64,000 nucleotides of DNA from Agriterribacter humi (lineage in GTDB: Bacteria > Bacteroidota > Bacteroidia > Chitinophagales > Chitinophagaceae). The DNA is taken from NCBI RefSeq assembly GCF_009192765.1, contig NZ_VOHQ01000006.1, positions 248,001 to 312,000 on the forward strand. Reading direction: 5' to 3'. A model generated the notes under the pieces. It had not been told where the DNA came from. It saw nothing but the letters and a program-made list of their open reading frames with translations, and did not search any database. Made by a program: the position numbers and the translations under genes. How positions within the stretch are numbered: the first letter of the stretch is position 1; the number at the start of each line of letters is the position of its first letter. This document shows positions 9,067 through 24,311 of this stretch, piece after piece.

Positions 9067-9212
9067 AATTAAAATTTGTTGCGTTTATAAAAGAGGGTAC
9101 AATTTATAAAAAAATATGGTTTGAGACAGCTTTTAACAAACGCGCAACGAATTAGAAGTTTGAAGATTTCTAATTTATTAGTTTATGGCCCTTAAAAGAA
9201 CCCCACATAAAT
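9067..9212. other. Divergent intergenic region upstream of the his promoter
   Basis: This AT-rich stretch separates the DUF1080 gene from the his leader. It contains a perfect inverted repeat, AATTAGAA at 9150-9157 and TTCTAATT at 9168-9175, 10 bases apart, which could be an operator or a weak hairpin. No open reading frame of interest. Confidence 0.4.
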
Positions 9213-9243
9213 TTTGCCACGTAAAAGCTGTACCTTATTTTTG
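9213..9243 (+). promoter_or_regulatory. Bacteroidota-type promoter of the his operon
   Basis: A -33 box TTTG (9213-9216) and a -7 box TATTTTTG (9236-9243, exact to TAnnTTTG) are separated by 19 bases, the consensus spacing for the primary sigma factor of this phylum. Transcription should begin near 9250, leaving a short A-rich 5' end before the hisL start codon at 9265. Confidence 0.75.
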
Positions 9244-9264
9244 CGGCGTTAAAAAAATGTAATA

Positions 9265-9312
9265 ATGATCCATCGCACACATCACCACCATCATTTCTTG
9301 CCCAAAGGGTAG
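9265..9312 (+). CDS. hisL: his operon leader peptide
   Basis: A 15-codon frame encoding MIHRTHHHHHFLPKG with stop TAG at 9310-9312. Six of fifteen residues are histidine, five of them consecutive (codons 9280-9294, a mix of CAT and CAC). It lies between a consensus promoter and a rho-independent terminator, about 90 bases upstream of hisG. This is the classic composition of an attenuation leader peptide, in which scarcity of charged tRNA-His stalls the ribosome at the histidine run. The stop codon sits inside the 5' arm of the predicted antiterminator. Confidence 0.9.
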   Translation: MIHRTHHHHHFLPKG

Positions 9313-9361
9313 GCCGGTGCTGTATGTGCAGATTTCAATACAACATGTTTAGAGGCTTACC
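9308..9361 (+). promoter_or_regulatory. his antiterminator helix
   Basis: GGTAGGCC (9308-9315) can pair over all eight positions, one a G-T wobble, with GGCTTACC (9354-9361), the 5' arm of the terminator. A nested helix TGCTGTAT (9318-9325) with ATACAACA (9338-9345) supports it with one mismatch. The outer 5' arm includes the hisL stop codon. A ribosome stalled in the His run (9280-9294) leaves the arm free, whereas one reaching the stop covers it. Confidence 0.75.
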
Positions 9362-9379
9362 GTTAGGTAGGTCTTTTTT
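9354..9379 (+). terminator. his attenuator rho-independent terminator
   Basis: Stem GGCTTACC (9354-9361) with GGTAGGTC (9366-9373), a GTTA loop, and a run of six T (9374-9379). Two of the eight pairs are G-T wobbles. It lies 20 bases before hisG. Its 5' arm is shared with the antiterminator, so the two structures exclude each other. Confidence 0.82.
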
Positions 9380-9398
9380 ATTTTAAATACATCAGATA

Positions 9399-10250
9399 AT
9401 GCTTAAACTGGCAATACAAAAATCGGGACGGCTGCATGAAGATTCGATGAAGCTGCTAAAAGAATGTGGCATCGCTATTTCCAATGGCGCCAATAAACTT
9501 AAAACGGAAGCCACCAATTTTCCGCTGCAGGTGTTTTTCTTAAGGGATGATGATATACCTCAGTACGTGGAAGATGCGGTAGCAGATATTGGTATCGTTG
9601 GCGAGAATGTGGTATATGAAAAAAACAAGTCGGTAAAAACGGTAGAGCAACTGGGTTTTGGTGGTTGCAGGTTAAGTATTGCAGTTGTAAGAGGCGAACA
9701 GTATAACAATATTCAATCGCTTGAAGGAAGGCGCATTGCCACCAGTTACCCGCATCTCACTAAGCAATTTCTTAAAAAAAATAAAGTGAATGCCGAAATA
9801 CATGAGATCAGCGGTTCGGTGGAAATTGCTCCGGGCATCGGCTTGTCCGACGCGATCTGCGACCTGGTAAGCAGCGGATCTACTTTATTGACCAACGGAT
9901 TAAAAGAAGTGGAAACTATTTTGCAATCCCAGGCGGTGCTGATCCGCCATAATAATTTTAACGCGGCGCAGCAGCAGGTGCTTGATAAATTATTGTTTCG
10001 CATACACGCAGTAAGAAAAGCGAAGAACAATAAATATATTTTATTGAATGCACCAAATGATAAGCTGGATGAGATCATTGGTTTGCTGCCGGGAATGAAA
10101 AGTCCCACGGTATTGCCCCTGGCAGATAAAGGATGGAGCTCGGTGCACAGCGTATTAAGCGAAGATGAATTTTGGGATAAAATAGAGCAATTGAAAGCCG
10201 CAGGCGCACAGGGTATACTGGTGGTGCCGATTGAGAAAATGGTGATGTAG
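9399..10250 (+). CDS. hisG: ATP phosphoribosyltransferase, long form
   Basis: A 283-residue long-form HisG catalysing the first step of histidine synthesis (ATP + PRPP). The N-terminus LAIQKSGRLHEDSMKLL and the PRPP-binding-type segment DAICDLVSSGSTLLTNGL (about residues 152-169) mark the catalytic domains. The last 70 residues (IGLLPGMKSPTVLPLADKGWSSVHSV...) form the PII-like regulatory domain, so no HisZ partner is needed and histidine feedback is expected. It is the first structural gene after the attenuator. Confidence 0.97.
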   Translation: MLKLAIQKSGRLHEDSMKLLKECGIAISNGANKLKTEATNFPLQVFFLRDDDIPQYVEDAVADIGIVGENVVYEKNKSVKTVEQLGFGGCRLSIAVVRGEQYNNIQSLEGRRIATSYPHLTKQFLKKNKVNAEIHEISGSVEIAPGIGLSDAICDLVSSGSTLLTNGLKEVETILQSQAVLIRHNNFNAAQQQVLDKLLFRIHAVRKAKNNKYILLNAPNDKLDEIIGLLPGMKSPTVLPLADKGWSSVHSVLSEDEFWDKIEQLKAAGAQGILVVPIEKMVM

Positions 10251-10375: not shown

Positions 10376-11647
10376 ATGAACGTTATCATCCATCCCCCGC
10401 GCAACGAATGGCCTGCATTGCTGCAACGGCCGGTGCTGGATCATTTCACGCTCGAAACTGCCGTGCAGGAGGTCTTGAACCATGTAAAGAAGAACGGCGA
10501 TGAGGCGCTGGTTGAATTAACCCAACGTTTTGATGGGGTGCTTATAAAAAATATCCGGGTACCTGAGCAGGAAATAGCAACAGCAGCGCAAACCTTACCG
10601 GTGGAACTTAAAAAAGCCATAACGCAGGCAAAGGAAAATATTGAAAAATTTCATACTGCACAGATGCAGGCGGTAATAAAAATGGAAACCATGCCGGGCG
10701 TGCAGTGCTGGCGCAAAAGCATTGGAATAGAAAAAGTAGGGTTATATATTCCGGGTGGTTCAGCACCGCTCTTCTCTACTGTTTTAATGCTCGGCATACC
10801 GGCAGTGCTGGCAGGCTGCAAAGAAATTATTTTATGCACACCTCCCGGTAAAGATGGTACTATTCATCCTGCTGTTTTATATGCGGCAACAGCTGCCGGG
10901 ATCACTCAAATATATAAAGCCGGCGGTGCACAGGCCATAGCAGCTATGGCTTATGGAACGGAAACCATTGCTGCGGTATATAAAATCTTTGGCCCGGGTA
11001 ACCAGTATGTAACCTGCGCCAAGCAATTGGTACAACGCGATGGCATTGCCATTGATATGCCGGCCGGCCCTAGCGAAGTATGTGTGCTGGCCGATGAAAC
11101 GGCCAATGCAGCTTATGTTGCCGCCGACCTTTTATCGCAGGCCGAACATGGGCCAGACAGCCAGGTGTTGCTGGTGAGTACTTCGGCCGCTATGACTGAA
11201 AAAATTATTAAAGAAAAGCAGAAGCAATTGGCCGCACTTCCGCGAAGGGATATTGCCACAAAGGCATTGGCAAACAGCAAAGCCATTATTGTGGAAAATA
11301 TGGCTGATGCTTTGGCATTGATTAACGCGTATGCGCCGGAACACCTGATCATTAGCTGTGAAAATGATGAAGCCATAGCGGAGCAGGTGGTGAATGCCGG
11401 TTCCGTGTTCCTGGGCAATTATTCGCCCGAAAGCGTTGGGGATTATGCCAGCGGAACCAATCATACCCTGCCTACTAACGGCTATGCCAAAGTGTACAGC
11501 GGCGTGAGTGTTGACAGCTTTGTAAAAAATATCACTTATCAAAAGTTAACACAGGAAGGCCTGAAAAATATCGCTTCCACTGTAATCAGTATGGCAGAAG
11601 CCGAGGGACTGCAGGCGCATGCCAATGCGGTGAAAGTGAGAATGTAA
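10376..11647 (+). CDS. hisD: Histidinol dehydrogenase
   Basis: A 423-residue, full-length HisD, which oxidises histidinol to histidine in two NAD-dependent steps. Hallmarks in order: GLYIPGGSAPLFST (about 122-135), the GPGNQYV segment, MPAGPSEVCVLAD, LLSQAEHGPDSQ (zinc and catalytic His region), YAPEHLII, and the C-terminal GDYASGTNHTLPTNGYAK. It is the second structural gene of the operon. The start is fixed by the usual N-terminal NVIIHPPRNEWPALLQRP. Confidence 0.97.
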   Translation: MNVIIHPPRNEWPALLQRPVLDHFTLETAVQEVLNHVKKNGDEALVELTQRFDGVLIKNIRVPEQEIATAAQTLPVELKKAITQAKENIEKFHTAQMQAVIKMETMPGVQCWRKSIGIEKVGLYIPGGSAPLFSTVLMLGIPAVLAGCKEIILCTPPGKDGTIHPAVLYAATAAGITQIYKAGGAQAIAAMAYGTETIAAVYKIFGPGNQYVTCAKQLVQRDGIAIDMPAGPSEVCVLADETANAAYVAADLLSQAEHGPDSQVLLVSTSAAMTEKIIKEKQKQLAALPRRDIATKALANSKAIIVENMADALALINAYAPEHLIISCENDEAIAEQVVNAGSVFLGNYSPESVGDYASGTNHTLPTNGYAKVYSGVSVDSFVKNITYQKLTQEGLKNIASTVISMAEAEGLQAHANAVKVRM

Positions 11648-11753
11648 GTAATGAAAATTATAAACTATAAATTCTAATGTGAGTGGTGAGTCGTCAGTAG
11701 TGAGTGGGGTTATCTTAACCACAAACAATAAACCACAAATTGAAATATCGGCT
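11648..11753. repeat. hisD-hisC gap with short-word repeats
   Basis: After the hisD stop are TATAAACTATAAATT and GTGAGTGGTGAGTCG / GTCAGTAGTGAGTGGGG words, then ACCACAAACAATAAACCACAAATT just before hisC. An in-frame ATG at 11679 lies inside this repeat and would give hisC 25 extra residues without homology, so I reject it as the start. Confidence 0.55.
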
Positions 11754-12812
11754 ATGAATTTTAACATAAACGACCTGGTAAGAGAAAATGTAAAAAAACT
11801 GGTTCCCTATTCTTCTGCCCGCGATGAGTTTAGCGGGGAGGCAAAGATCTTCTTAGACGCAAATGAAAACAGTCTGGGGTCGCCCACAACAAAGTGGTAT
11901 AACCGCTATCCCGATCCGCACCAGCAAAAAATAAAAGAAAAGCTTACCACTATAAAAGGCGTGCCGTCAAAAAATATTTTTTTGGGCAATGGCAGCGATG
12001 AGTGTATTGACCTGCTGTTCCGTGCTTTTTGTAATCCCGGAAAGGATAATGTAATTATTTGTCCGCCTACTTACGGTATGTATGAAGTGAGCGCCCATAT
12101 TAATGATGTGGAATTGCGTAAAGTGCCCCTGCTTGAAAACTTCCAGTTAGATCTGGTACACCTGGAAACGAAGGTGGACGATTTTACAAAGATCATCTGG
12201 TTGTGCTCGCCCAATAATCCCACCGCCAATTCGCTCAACAGAGAGGATATAGAAATAGTGCTGAATAATTTCCCCGGCATCGTGGTCATTGATGAGGCCT
12301 ATATCAATTTCTCACGCCACCGGTCTTTTGTGCAGGAACTGGCCGAGTACCCTAATCTTGTTGTTTTACAAACCCTTTCTAAAGCATGGGGGCTCGCAGG
12401 ATTGCGTTTGGGTATGGCTTTTGCGGGAGAAGAGATCATAAGTATCTATAATAAAATAAAGCCGCCTTATAATATCGGTCAGGCAACACAGGAAATAGTA
12501 TTGAATGCGCTGGATCATGTAGAGGATGTGAATGAAATGATAAGGGTGCTGGTGCGGGAACGGGATATGATGGCGGAACAACTGTTATCGGTTGCTGTGG
12601 TGGAACAAGTATATCCCTCGGATGCCAATTTCCTGCTGGTAAAGGTGAAGGATGCGAGGGCTGTTTATACCGCTTTATTGAGCAAGGGTATTGTGGTTCG
12701 CGACCGGAGCAATGTGCAGCTATGTGAAGGCTGCCTGCGTATAACGGTAGGTAGTCCTGCAGAAAATACAGCCCTCGTGAATAGTTTAAAGGATTTTGTC
12801 ACGACTTTGTAA
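11754..12812 (+). CDS. hisC: Histidinol-phosphate aminotransferase
   Basis: A 352-residue fold-type I PLP enzyme that converts imidazole-acetol phosphate to histidinol phosphate. The conserved LDANENSLGSP start, the NPTANSL segment binding the cofactor, VIDEAYINFS, and the Schiff-base lysine in TLSKAWGLAGLRLGMAF (about residue 212) are all visible. The start codon at 11754 (MNFNINDLVREN) was chosen over an upstream ATG lying in an intergenic repeat. Confidence 0.96.
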   Translation: MNFNINDLVRENVKKLVPYSSARDEFSGEAKIFLDANENSLGSPTTKWYNRYPDPHQQKIKEKLTTIKGVPSKNIFLGNGSDECIDLLFRAFCNPGKDNVIICPPTYGMYEVSAHINDVELRKVPLLENFQLDLVHLETKVDDFTKIIWLCSPNNPTANSLNREDIEIVLNNFPGIVVIDEAYINFSRHRSFVQELAEYPNLVVLQTLSKAWGLAGLRLGMAFAGEEIISIYNKIKPPYNIGQATQEIVLNALDHVEDVNEMIRVLVRERDMMAEQLLSVAVVEQVYPSDANFLLVKVKDARAVYTALLSKGIVVRDRSNVQLCEGCLRITVGSPAENTALVNSLKDFVTTL

Positions 12813-12838
12813 TTTTATGTTTCTAAAAACGATATGAT

Positions 12839-14131
12839 ATGAAAACGATCAAATGGTATCTGTCATGTTTGGTTTTTACATGCATGATAGTGGTATCTGC
12901 ATGCGCGGAAGAAAATAAAAACATATCCGATACTACAGCTATACTACCGGCTGGTTCCGTTAATCCCGGTTTAACATTACCCGATGGCTTTACGGCAACT
13001 ACGGTGGCGGAAAACCTGGGAAGTGTGCGGCATATTGCGGTAAGCAGTAACGGAGATATATACGCGAAACTGGAGAAGCTGAAAGATGGCAAAGGCATTC
13101 TGCTGCTGAAGGGAGGAAATGCGACAGCGGTGAGTAGTTTTGGCAATTATCCCGGTACGGGCATCTCTATTAAAGATGGTTATTTGTATGCGTCTTCCAA
13201 CTCGGCTGTATACCGCTACAAACTGAACGCCAATAATGAAGTGGAGAACCCCGGTAAACCGGAAACCATTATAAAAGGACTGACTGACCGCGGACAGCAT
13301 AACTCCAAATCCATTACGCTGGATGATGCAGGTAATATTTATGTAAACATAGGTGCACCCTCCAACTCCTGCCAGGTGCAGGACAGGGCGGTAGGATCAA
13401 AAGGACAGGATCCCTGCCCGATATTAGAATATGCCGGGGGGATATGGCAGTTTAAAGCAGGCACGCCCGGCCAGGAATTTAAAGATGGCGTACGCTATGC
13501 CACCGGCATCAGGAATTCCGTTGCGTTAAGCTGGAACAGCAGCGCCAACGAATTATATGTATTGCAGCACGGGCGCGATGACCTGCACCGCATGTTTGAT
13601 GATCTGTATACCACTAAGGACAATGCTGAATTACCGGCTGAAGAATTTTTATTGGCCAAAAAAGGATCGAACTTTGGTTGGCCCTATTGTTATTATGACG
13701 GAAAGCAACAGAAAAAAATATTAGCGCCGGAATATGGTGGTGACGCCAAAACGCAGGGCCGTTGTGAAAGCGTAGATAAGCCCATCATGGCGTTTCCGGC
13801 TCACCTGGCGCCCAATGCATTGCTTTTTTATACAGGCAGCCAGTTCCCTGAAAAGTATAAAAACGGCGCTTTCATTGCTTTTCATGGATCATGGAACAGG
13901 GCGCCGGAGCCGCAGGCCGGATTTTTTGTAGTATTTGTGCCCATGAAAGATGGTAAACCCAGCGGCGAATGGGAAGTGTTTGCAGACGGGTTTGCCGGCA
14001 GCGATGAAAAGAAAGCCTCCGGCAGGGTAGATTACCGCCCCTGCGGTTTGGCGCAGGCGCCGGATGGCGCTTTATATGTGTCGGATGATAACAAGGGTAA
14101 TATATGGAAGATTACTTATAACGGTAAATAA
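12839..14131 (+). CDS. PQQ-type sugar/sorbosone dehydrogenase-like lipoprotein
   Basis: A 430-residue lipoprotein with signal peptide and lipobox VVSAC near residue 21, followed by a six-bladed beta-propeller of the soluble glucose/L-sorbosone dehydrogenase family. Matching segments are LPDGFTATTVAENLGSVRHIAV, ATGIRNSVALSWN, GSNFGWPYCYYDG, FIAFHGSWNRAP and the ending GLAQAPDGALYVSDDNKGNIWKI. It probably oxidises a sugar with PQQ in the periplasm and passes electrons to the cytochrome c encoded one base downstream. Its place inside the his operon, 26 bases after hisC and upstream of hisB, is unexpected, since no histidine step is periplasmic. Confidence 0.85.
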   Translation: MKTIKWYLSCLVFTCMIVVSACAEENKNISDTTAILPAGSVNPGLTLPDGFTATTVAENLGSVRHIAVSSNGDIYAKLEKLKDGKGILLLKGGNATAVSSFGNYPGTGISIKDGYLYASSNSAVYRYKLNANNEVENPGKPETIIKGLTDRGQHNSKSITLDDAGNIYVNIGAPSNSCQVQDRAVGSKGQDPCPILEYAGGIWQFKAGTPGQEFKDGVRYATGIRNSVALSWNSSANELYVLQHGRDDLHRMFDDLYTTKDNAELPAEEFLLAKKGSNFGWPYCYYDGKQQKKILAPEYGGDAKTQGRCESVDKPIMAFPAHLAPNALLFYTGSQFPEKYKNGAFIAFHGSWNRAPEPQAGFFVVFVPMKDGKPSGEWEVFADGFAGSDEKKASGRVDYRPCGLAQAPDGALYVSDDNKGNIWKITYNGK

Positions 14132-14132
14132 T

Positions 14133-14561
14133 ATGCGAAGAAGACTGATTCCTGTAAATGTGGTGATTGCCGCTCTTTTATTTATTTTGCTGAGCCTTGA
14201 GCCCGATCAAACCAAACCACCCGCAGCGGTAATGGAAAGAGGCAAAACGGTATATACAAAAGAGTGTTTAACCTGTCACCAGGCAGATGGACTTGGGGTG
14301 CAGCGTATGAATCCGCCATTGGCAAAAACGGAATGGGTGCTGGGGCCAAAGGCAAGGCTTATAAAAATTGTAGTAAACGGGTTAACGGATCCTATAGAAA
14401 TTGATGGGGATACTTTTCATAACCCTATGCCGCCTCATCCGCATTTAACCGACCAGCAGGTGGCAGATGTGCTCACCTATGTGCGCAATAGCTTCGGTAA
14501 CAAAGCCAGTGCCGTTACCATACGGGAAGTAAAGAAGGTAAGAGCGGAAAAAAAAAGCTGA
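14133..14561 (+). CDS. Membrane-anchored monohaem cytochrome c
   Basis: A 142-residue protein with an N-terminal signal/anchor (MRRRLIPVNVVIAALLFILL) and one haem-binding motif CLTCH at about residues 48-52. The likely axial methionine is in HNPMPPHPH. The start at 14133, one base after the upstream stop, was chosen because the longer frame runs back into the dehydrogenase gene. It is presumably the electron acceptor of the preceding PQQ-type dehydrogenase. hisB follows after 38 bases. Confidence 0.88.
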   Translation: MRRRLIPVNVVIAALLFILLSLEPDQTKPPAAVMERGKTVYTKECLTCHQADGLGVQRMNPPLAKTEWVLGPKARLIKIVVNGLTDPIEIDGDTFHNPMPPHPHLTDQQVADVLTYVRNSFGNKASAVTIREVKKVRAEKKS

Positions 14562-14599
14562 ACAGATGATTTAACAACTAAACCCCTGAAATAAGAATT

Positions 14600-15742
14600 A
14601 TGGCAAAACGGATTTTATTTATTGACAGAGACGGCACATTGATTTATGAAGCTCCTCCCACCTACCAGTTGGATGCATTTGAGAAGCTTACTTTTTACCC
14701 GCACATGTTTGAATACATGACCAAAATTGCCAGGGAATTAGACTATGAACTGGTGATGGTAAGCAACCAGGATGGATTGGGAACGGATGTGTTTCCGGAA
14801 GATACATTTTGGCCTTTGCATAATTTAGTGATGAAGAGCCTCGAAGGGGAAGACATTTTTTTCAGCGCGGTGCATATAGACAGAACCTACCCGCATGAAA
14901 ATGCGCCAACCCGTAAACCGGCCACCGGTATGCTCACGCAATATTTGAATAACGAGGATTATGATATCGCCCATTCATTTGTCATAGGCGACCGCATAAC
15001 AGATATACAATTGGCCAAGAACCTCGGCTGCAGGGGCATCTGGCTCAACAATGATGCTTCACTGGGCGCTGCCGAAATTTCGGATAAGGCAGCTGCGCTG
15101 CAGGATACCATTGCACTGGAAACAACGGAATGGAGCAAAATATATGAATTTTTAAAGATGGGATTGCGTTCGGTTACCCAGGAGCGTAATACCAATGAAA
15201 CAAAGATCAGCGTGGCATTGAATGTTGACGGGTCGGGGAAAGCAGACATTTCAACAGGCATTGGTTTTTTCGATCACATGCTTGAACAAATTGCCCGACA
15301 TGGTAAAATGGATTTATCTGTTCGTACCAAAGGCGATCTGCACATTGATGAACATCATACCATTGAAGATACGGGCATTGCGCTGGGAGAAGCTTTTGCC
15401 AAAGCTTTGGCCGATAAAAGAGGGATGGAACGCTATGGATTTGCCCTGCCCATGGATGAAGCCGATGCCAAAGTGCTGATTGATTTTGGCGGGCGGAACT
15501 GGCTGGTATGGAATGCAGTATTTAAGCGCGAGAAGATAGGGGAGATGCCCACGGAAATGTTCTATCATTTCTTTAAATCATTTTCCGATGCTGCTAAATG
15601 CAATCTCAATATTGAGTGCAGGGGCGACAACGAACATCACAAAATAGAAGCCATATTCAAAGCTTTTGCCAAAGCCATCCACATGGCGGTAAAGCGCGAC
15701 CCGCTGAGCAATTATTTGCCAAGCACAAAGGGGGTATTATAA
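14600..15742 (+). CDS. hisB: Bifunctional histidinol-phosphatase / imidazoleglycerol-phosphate dehydratase
   Basis: A 380-residue fused enzyme. The N-terminal HAD phosphatase domain has the nucleophile motif [13 protein letters not shown] (residues 5-17) and [14 protein letters not shown]. The C-terminal dehydratase domain (from about residue 190) has the metal-binding [14 protein letters not shown] and [10 protein letters not shown], a second [10 protein letters not shown] segment, and [17 protein letters not shown] near the end. It performs the sixth and eighth steps of histidine synthesis. It closes this his locus; hisH, A, F and IE are elsewhere in the window. Confidence 0.97.
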
Positions 15743-24167: not shown

Positions 24168-24227
24168 ATGAAAAATAATACAAATAAATACTGGTGGTGG
24201 CATACAAACTCTCTGTGGGGCTTGTAA
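24168..24227 (+). CDS. trpL: trp operon leader peptide
   Basis: A 19-codon frame encoding MKNNTNKYWWWHTNSLWGL with stop TAA at 24225-24227. Three consecutive tryptophan codons (24192-24200) and a fourth at 24216-24218 make four of nineteen residues tryptophan. It is followed by a rho-independent terminator and then trpE, so it is an attenuation leader peptide. The fourth Trp codon, the next two codons and the stop codon lie inside the antiterminator 5' arm. Confidence 0.92.
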   Translation: MKNNTNKYWWWHTNSLWGL

Positions 24228-24268
24228 TGCTGTTATCGTATTTTAGTATATTACAATATTCAGGCCCC
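24217..24268 (+). promoter_or_regulatory. trp antiterminator helix
   Basis: GGGGCTTG (24217-24224) can pair fully with CAGGCCCC (24261-24268), which includes the 5' arm of the terminator. Alternatively GGGGC pairs with GCCCC (24264-24268) while TTGTAAT (24222-24228) pairs perfectly with ATTACAA (24250-24256). Either form blocks the terminator. The 5' arm overlaps the end of trpL, so a ribosome at the stop prevents it and a ribosome stalled at TGG codons permits it. Confidence 0.78.
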
Positions 24269-24289
24269 GGTAATCACCGGGGTTTTTTT
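24265..24289 (+). terminator. trp attenuator rho-independent terminator
   Basis: A perfect seven-base stem CCCCGGT (24265-24271) with ACCGGGG (24276-24282), tetraloop AATC, and seven T (24283-24289). It is the strongest terminator hairpin in the window and lies 22 bases before trpE. Confidence 0.92.
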
Positions 24290-24311
24290 ATGAAAATGGA
24301 ATAAGGCAGTT

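What the first reader, a model, noticed from the sequence alone, without database searches (positions are those of the whole stretch)
9213..9379. Complete his attenuator with a polyhistidine leader peptide
Seen: a consensus promoter (9213-9243), a leader frame MIHRTHHHHHFLPKG (9265-9312), an antiterminator (9308-9315 with 9354-9361, plus nested 9318-9325 with 9338-9345) and a terminator (9354-9373 then six T). The antiterminator 5' arm contains the leader stop codon. The geometry works: a ribosome stalled at 9280-9294 leaves 9308 free, and one at the stop covers it. Known: attenuation by leader peptides is classic in Proteobacteria. Inferred: the same control, in a reduced two-state form, acts in this organism.
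Basis: partly seen in the sequence, partly recalled or inferred. Interest (0 to 1): 0.75.

Follow-up and report, generated by a model that had tools for sequence, protein, structure and literature searches.

The report
Histidine leader attenuator in Bacteroidota
Just ahead of a bacterium's histidine-making genes lies a tiny gene rich in histidine codons followed by an RNA switch, which probably lets the genes be read only when histidine runs short; this is a classic type of control, found here in a group of bacteria where little about it has been described.

Summary
A leader frame MIHRTHHHHHFLPKG* (9265-9312) lies behind a Bacteroidota-type promoter (9213-9243) and ahead of a U-tailed terminator (9351-9379) and an antiterminator (9308-9315 with 9354-9361), just before hisG. 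A His-rich leader frame precedes hisG in 114 of 116 close loci (16 of 1160 shuffles) and, by a looser test without its own control, in 70 of 80 loci from 21 families of the phylum. Arms differ between families yet fit their own partners better than foreign ones. With a model ribosome the window's antiterminator forms at 0.98 (first His codon of the run), 0 (stop) and 0.003 (no ribosome). It does not match Rfam's proteobacterial His leader but works by the same logic. Precedents in the phylum: Rfam's Bacteroid-trp leader and a hisG 5' element in Flavobacteriaceae. New member of a known kind; nothing was tested at the bench.

The parts
9213..9243 (+). Bacteroidota-type promoter: TTTG 9213-9216, 19-nt spacer, TATTTTTG 9236-9243
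   Evidence: Sequence. TAnnTTTG lies within 45 nt upstream of the leader start in 93 of 101 distinct leaders, against 69 of 2020 mononucleotide shuffles of 55 nt. Start of transcription inferred a few bases after 9243, not mapped.
9265..9312 (+). leader peptide gene MIHRTHHHHHFLPKG, stop TAG 9310-9312
   Evidence: A His-rich leader frame precedes hisG in 114 of 116 loci.
9280..9294 (+). five tandem histidine codons, the presumed sensing codons
   Evidence: The last His codon of the frame starts 16 nt before the antiterminator arm here and in 48 of 101 distinct leaders, 13-19 nt in 85 of 101.
9297..9303 (+). segment 1, CTTGCCC, protector arm (pairs with 9307-9313)
   Evidence: MFE folds. The arm is hidden more than when the bases between are shuffled, p<=0.05 in 62 of 101; partner swap 18 of 99 at <=0.05; no covariation above shuffles on the MAFFT alignment.
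9308..9315 (+). segment 2, GGTAGGCC, antiterminator 5' arm; holds the leader stop codon
   Evidence: stop codon wholly inside the arm in 78 of 101 distinct leaders.
9316..9329 (+). segment 2b, GGTGCTGTATGTGC, pairs back to the His-codon region when no ribosome is there
   Evidence: MFE folds; not tested separately for conservation.
9354..9361 (+). segment 3, GGCTTACC, antiterminator 3' arm and inner part of the terminator 5' arm
9351..9379 (+). intrinsic terminator: stem 9351-9361 with 9366-9376, loop 9362-9365, U-tract 9374-9379
   Evidence: 96.2% of cells paired and 7 of 11 pairs with changes on both sides in 29 relatives.
9399..10250 (+). hisG, first gene of the cluster
   Evidence: TIGR00070 202 bits and TIGR03455, HisG C-terminal domain.
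10376..15742 (+). hisD (10376-11647), hisC (frame 11679-12812, start not settled), two non-his frames (12839-14561), hisB (14600-15742)
   Evidence: that they share one transcript with hisG is inferred from order and strand.

Best explanation
A ribosome-mediated transcription attenuator of the his cluster. RNA polymerase makes the leader; a ribosome translates the 15-codon frame. If charged His-tRNA is short, the ribosome stalls on 9280-9294, covers segment 1 and leaves 9308-9315 free, which pairs with 9354-9361 as soon as that is made, so the terminator cannot form and hisG is transcribed. If histidine is plentiful the ribosome runs to the stop codon, which lies inside 9308-9315, covers that arm, and the terminator 9351-9376 forms. 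If no ribosome loads, segment 1 and the His-codon region hide the same arm and the terminator again forms. Shown: the sequence parts, their conservation, arms that fit their own partners across families, and folding under a model ribosome. Inferred: transcription start, leader translation, stalling, termination and the histidine response.
For: Parts present and in the right geometry. His-rich leader in 114 of 116 close loci against 16 of 1160 shuffles. Terminator plus antiterminator called in 101 of 103 distinct leaders, two of them weak. Antiterminator probability >0.5 with the ribosome on the first His codon of the run in 97 of 101, on the last in 99, at the stop in 0 (12-nt edge); real against shuffled spacer 95 of 101 against 173 of 505. 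The terminator 5' arm pairs better with its own leader than with leaders of other families: mean -13.7 against -8.7 kcal/mol, at most 5% of foreign leaders as good in 29 of 60. Linked arm changes, e.g. L108 and L110, where segments 1 to 4 differ together from the common form. Model R1 hits beside hisG in 23 of 25 family genomes known to have hisG, and nowhere in 5 known to lack it (compared by eye).
Against: No RNA or expression data. With no ribosome the antiterminator still exceeds 0.5 in 44 of 101 (median 0.39), so the protector is not dominant everywhere. The protector's swap test is weak (18 of 99 at <=0.05, median rank 0.39) and the MAFFT-based count shows nothing above shuffles. Protector and antiterminator stretches fold no better than many shuffles. 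The stop-state result is partly built in, since the arm usually contains the stop codon. The arm core is nearly invariant inside the family, so covariation of the antiterminator is slight (3 cells with both sides changed, reached by 8 of 500 shuffles). A shuffled spacer gives a likely antiterminator in about a third of cases. In the swap test 21 of 60 rows have more than 10% of foreign leaders as good. R1 was trained on 19 of the 23 positive genomes.
Confidence: 0.92

Rival explanations
1. The leader acts at the level of translation (hiding the hisG start) or through Rho, and the hairpin is not the switch.
For: In family f42 His-rich leaders precede hisG with no intrinsic terminator called in 13 of 14 and with a G-poor stretch, so the sensor can exist without this terminator.
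Against: In the window the hairpin is followed by six T and ends 22 bases before the hisG start; 101 of 103 distinct leaders of close relatives have both terminator and antiterminator called.
Confidence: 0.04
2. The short frame encodes a small His-rich protein with its own job (for instance binding metal), and the terminator merely ends a small RNA.
For: His-rich peptides can bind metals (recalled); the frame is conserved.
Against: The His run is the constant part, while flanking residues and length vary; a matched antiterminator follows; leader-like frames with Trp, Phe/Tyr or Ile/Val runs precede a trpE-like gene, a prephenate dehydratase gene and ilvD in the same genome.
Confidence: 0.02
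3. A tRNA- or metabolite-binding riboswitch (T-box-like) with a chance His-rich frame.
For: T-boxes control his genes in Firmicutes and Actinobacteria (PMC9413887, abstract and passages).
Against: No Rfam family other than a distant tRNA gene reached its threshold in the window, and no T-box appears among the weak matches here; His frame in 114 of 116 against 16 of 1160 shuffles.
Confidence: 0.01

Closest known systems
Proteobacterial his operon leader (Rfam RF00514, His_leader; E. coli/Salmonella hisL)
   Same: His-codon run, overlapping protector, antiterminator and terminator, position before the his operon, same logic (hisL details recalled; logic also in PMC9413887, passages).
   Different: RF00514 is not among the matches even at E<=10; other promoter type; stop codon inside the antiterminator arm (whether hisL has this was not checked).
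Bacteroid-trp leader (Rfam RF01692, 'Bacteroidete tryptophan peptide leader RNA'; listed in a table of Weinberg 2010, PMC2864571, passages seen)
   Same: Leader-peptide cis-regulator in the same phylum.
   Different: Trp, not His; not among the matches to the his leader.
5' element upstream of hisG in Flavobacterium psychrophilum and other Flavobacteriaceae (PMC9723704; section '5' cis-regulatory RNAs' read, and passages)
   Same: Structured 5' region before hisG; the paper reports strong clues for leader-peptide attenuation before amino-acid biosynthesis operons.
   Different: The section read gives no peptide, arms or mechanism for hisG and says the elements have no Rfam hit; its supplements were not seen and may say more.
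Candidate his attenuators of Firmicutes (PMC9413887, abstract and passages)
   Same: Short leaders with three to five His codons in a row, terminator and antiterminator.
   Different: Other phylum; predicted there in 17 species.

Membership tests
ribosome-mediated (leader-peptide) transcription attenuator | short frame with a run of codons for the amino acid made by the operon | tested here: met
ribosome-mediated (leader-peptide) transcription attenuator | intrinsic terminator before the first gene | tested here: met
   (by computation)
ribosome-mediated (leader-peptide) transcription attenuator | antiterminator exclusive with the terminator and freed by a stall on the sensing codons | tested here: met
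   (by computation)
ribosome-mediated (leader-peptide) transcription attenuator | protector helix in the absence of translation | tested here: inconclusive
   Clear in the window's folds (0.003); moderate in relatives; no covariation above shuffles on the MAFFT alignment
ribosome-mediated (leader-peptide) transcription attenuator | leader is translated and expression responds to the amino acid | not testable with these tools
   Needs RNA mapping and reporters
Rfam RF00514 His_leader | match to the covariance model | tested here: not met
   Not among the 4 matches at E<=10 for 9150-9450; no gathering match in the window
T-box leader | match to an Rfam T-box model | tested here: not met

The most novel reading that the evidence does not exclude
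A His-codon sensor in front of hisG may be common across, and perhaps ancestral to, the phylum, with the switching part rebuilt several times: lineage-specific terminator/antiterminator arms in several families, and in family f42 no intrinsic terminator in 13 of 14 but a G-poor stretch that could be a Rho entry site. In some lineages the leader would be read from an almost leaderless RNA: start codon 4-5 nt after the promoter box in 15 of 93 close relatives and 11 of 14 in f42 (where starts near a box were preferred), although short 5' ends are reported as rare in two species of the phylum.
Probability: 0.35. Interest if true: 0.65.

Novelty: new member of a known kind. Interest (0 to 1): 0.42.

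Why it matters
I found little in print on control of amino-acid genes in Bacteroidota (ten searches, listed under Tried and rejected). This gives a base-level model of a his attenuator there, evidence that it is widespread in the family and probably beyond, and signs that the same organism may control trp, phe/tyr and ile/val genes likewise. It would mean that ribosome and RNA polymerase run closely enough together in this phylum for such a switch, which can be tested directly, and it offers a ready reporter of His-tRNA charging.

Tried and rejected
Rejected: the four weak Rfam matches near the site, all far below their families' thresholds. Rejected for lack of support: a second his element in the genome; R1 found only two weak further sites (E 0.08 and 0.83); one (L118) was read and not followed. 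Of little use: a scan for four His codons, 44 hits against 34 of the reversed control. MAFFT (A1) does not line up segment 1, so its pair count, which was negative, says little; searches replaced it and give moderate support.

Rows dropped or missed. One search counts some genomes twice (they are in both collections); L032 has no leader and L113 is cut off by its contig end. reduces the 114 to 103 distinct leaders; L030 and L103 got no antiterminator from my script (L103 has one by eye); L034 and L035 were called but are weak and were kept, left out. The leader test was loose (3 His in 6 codons, three start codons, up to 32 aa) and had no shuffle control of its own; several of its 70 hits (for example L147, L149, L150, L162, L185) may be chance. 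The 80 loci were my choice among the listed matches (that list was cut short), aimed at different families and genera. In one search the 13 rows from the 101 close leaders were chosen by hand for diversity, and the family label of L063, L087, L097 and L108 is my assumption. The hisG comparison was made by eye on 30 genomes.

Literature: ten searches were answered; two searches found nothing. None of the listings or passages seen describes a his leader peptide of Bacteroidota in detail, but most subscription papers are not held. Passages of PMC9026213, PMC8040213 and PMC2864571 did not mention a his attenuator. A survey of attenuators (Lopatovskaya 2010) was seen only in a reference list and may well cover this phylum.

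Full report
What is there. By record titles the nearest named relatives in hisG are mostly Chitinophagaceae or its genera, one title naming another family. The promoter is an exact TTTG-N19-TAnnTTTG, the form of this phylum (recalled; a flavobacterial map gives TAnnTTTG as the -7 box, PMC9723704, passage). The hisG product matches TIGR00070; hisD, hisC and hisB follow, with two frames between hisC and hisB that match heme-protein and cytochrome models weakly, below their cut-offs.

Beyond chance. The leader RNA folds at z -3.3, 0 of 200 shuffles as good, and the terminator stretch at z -3.4, 1 of 200; the protector and antiterminator stretches do not stand out (26 and 55 of 200 shuffles as good). 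On both strands of the window 8 short frames are His-rich and only this one is followed by a terminator.

Close relatives. hisG was found in 36 of 58 relatives, and 80 further named loci were kept, the best 80 of 256. A His-rich leader of at most 26 aa precedes hisG in 114 of 116 loci, some genomes being in both sets; shuffled upstream regions give 16 of 1160. Among 103 distinct leaders, terminator and antiterminator were called in 101. In these 101 the stop codon lies wholly inside the antiterminator arm in 78, and the last His codon starts exactly 16 nt before the arm in 48 and 13-19 nt before it in 85. That spacing leaves the arm free for a ribosome stalled in the run and hides it when the ribosome reaches the stop.

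Pairing. On 29 aligned relatives the terminator keeps 96.2% of cells paired, with changes on both sides in 7 of 11 pairs (0 of 500 shuffles); the antiterminator keeps 98.2%, with both-side changes in 3 of 8 pairs (8 of 500 shuffles). The core is nearly invariant, so covariation inside the family is limited. Linked changes exist: L108 and L110 differ in all four segments together, L028 and L097 have new arms that still fit. Over 18 families, 60 leaders with terminators (47 distant, 13 hand-picked close ones) were tested by partner swap: own pairing -13.7, foreign -8.7 kcal/mol on average; at most 5% of foreign leaders were as good in 29 of 60, at most 10% in 39.

Ribosome model. RNA up to the terminator's 3' arm was folded with bases hidden up to 12 or 15 nt past the first base of the A-site codon. 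In the window (12 nt) the antiterminator has probability 0.978 (first His of the run), 0.999 (last), 0.000 (stop) and 0.003 (no ribosome). In 101 leaders it exceeds 0.5 in 97, 99, 0 and 44. The stop result follows largely from the stop codon's place. With the spacer shuffled, 173 of 505 still exceed 0.5 against 95 of 101 real ones, so folding alone is not very specific.

The missed helix. CTTGCCC (9297-9303) pairs with GGGTAGG (9307-9313), and the His-codon region pairs with 9316-9329. In relatives the arm is hidden on average 0.74 against 0.56 when the bases between His run and arm are shuffled, with p<=0.05 in 62 of 101. The swap test gives 18 of 99 at <=0.05 where about 5 would be expected, median rank 0.39; the MAFFT-based count shows nothing above shuffles. 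I take the helix as probable, and prefer four segments to two states with moderate confidence.

Promoter and start. TAnnTTTG lies within 45 nt of the leader start in 93 of 101, shuffles 69 of 2020; in 44 of 93 the start codon follows the box within 8 nt, which would make the leader RNA nearly leaderless. In the window the gap is 21 nt. Leaderless mRNAs are given as 5.5% in F. psychrophilum, and 5' UTRs under 10 nt as about 3.7% in B. thetaiotaomicron (PMC9723704 and PMC7366714, passages).

Wider view. hisG was found in 252 of 296 genomes drawn from the phylum. Upstream stretches of 80 of these, chosen by me from 21 families, were fetched; 70 of 80 have a His-rich leader by a loose test; none in f33 (0 of 3), f66 (0 of 2), f37 and f44 (0 of 1 each), and part in f48 (2 of 4) and f28 (1 of 2). 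A terminator was called in 47 of the 70 and an antiterminator better than shuffles (p<=0.05) in 29. In the window's family R1 hits 93 of 117 genomes. Of 25 of these known to have hisG, 23 have the hit beside hisG, 19 of them being training sequences; G012 and G028 do not. Of 5 known to lack hisG none has a hit.

Place among known systems. It works like the classic his attenuator. It is not a match to Rfam's proteobacterial His leader. Naville and Gautheret 2010 (PMC2965389, passages) wrote that leader peptides had been shown, to their knowledge, only in Proteobacteria and Actinobacteria, and added Firmicutes. Rfam has a Bacteroidetes trp leader (RF01692), and PMC9723704 (section read) reports a conserved hisG 5' element in Flavobacteriaceae and clues of attenuation before amino-acid operons. 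So the kind, and partly the case, were foreshadowed; what is added is the base-level model, the further helix, and the spread over the family and probably the phylum.

Noticed in passing
window 24168-24290: A leader frame MKNNTNKYWWWHTNSLWGL with three tandem Trp codons, followed by a terminator, upstream of a gene with a chorismate-binding domain (trpE-like): a probable trp attenuator in the same window. Rfam Bacteroid-trp scores 22.7 bits there, below its threshold of 49.
   Followed up: partly
L200, L203, L205 (same genome, outside the window): Leader-like frames with runs of Phe/Tyr before a prephenate dehydratase gene, Ile/Val before ilvD, and Ile/Thr before an aspartate kinase gene (829-aa frame); the first two are followed by terminator-like hairpins by eye.
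   Followed up: partly
L186-L199 (family f42): His-rich leaders (5-12 His codons, GTG start in 12 of 14, 4-5 nt after a promoter-like box in 11 of 14) before hisG, no intrinsic terminator called in 13 of 14, and a G-poor last 100 nt (C 0.27, G 0.08, lowest G of the 21 families): possibly Rho-dependent control. A hairpin around the stop codon beats shuffles (p<=0.05) in 5 of 14.
   Followed up: partly
window 12839-14561: Two non-his frames with weak matches to heme-binding and cytochrome models sit between hisC and hisB.
   Followed up: no
window 9257-9262: An ATG directly followed by a stop codon lies just before the leader start; it is absent from the close relative L002.
   Followed up: no
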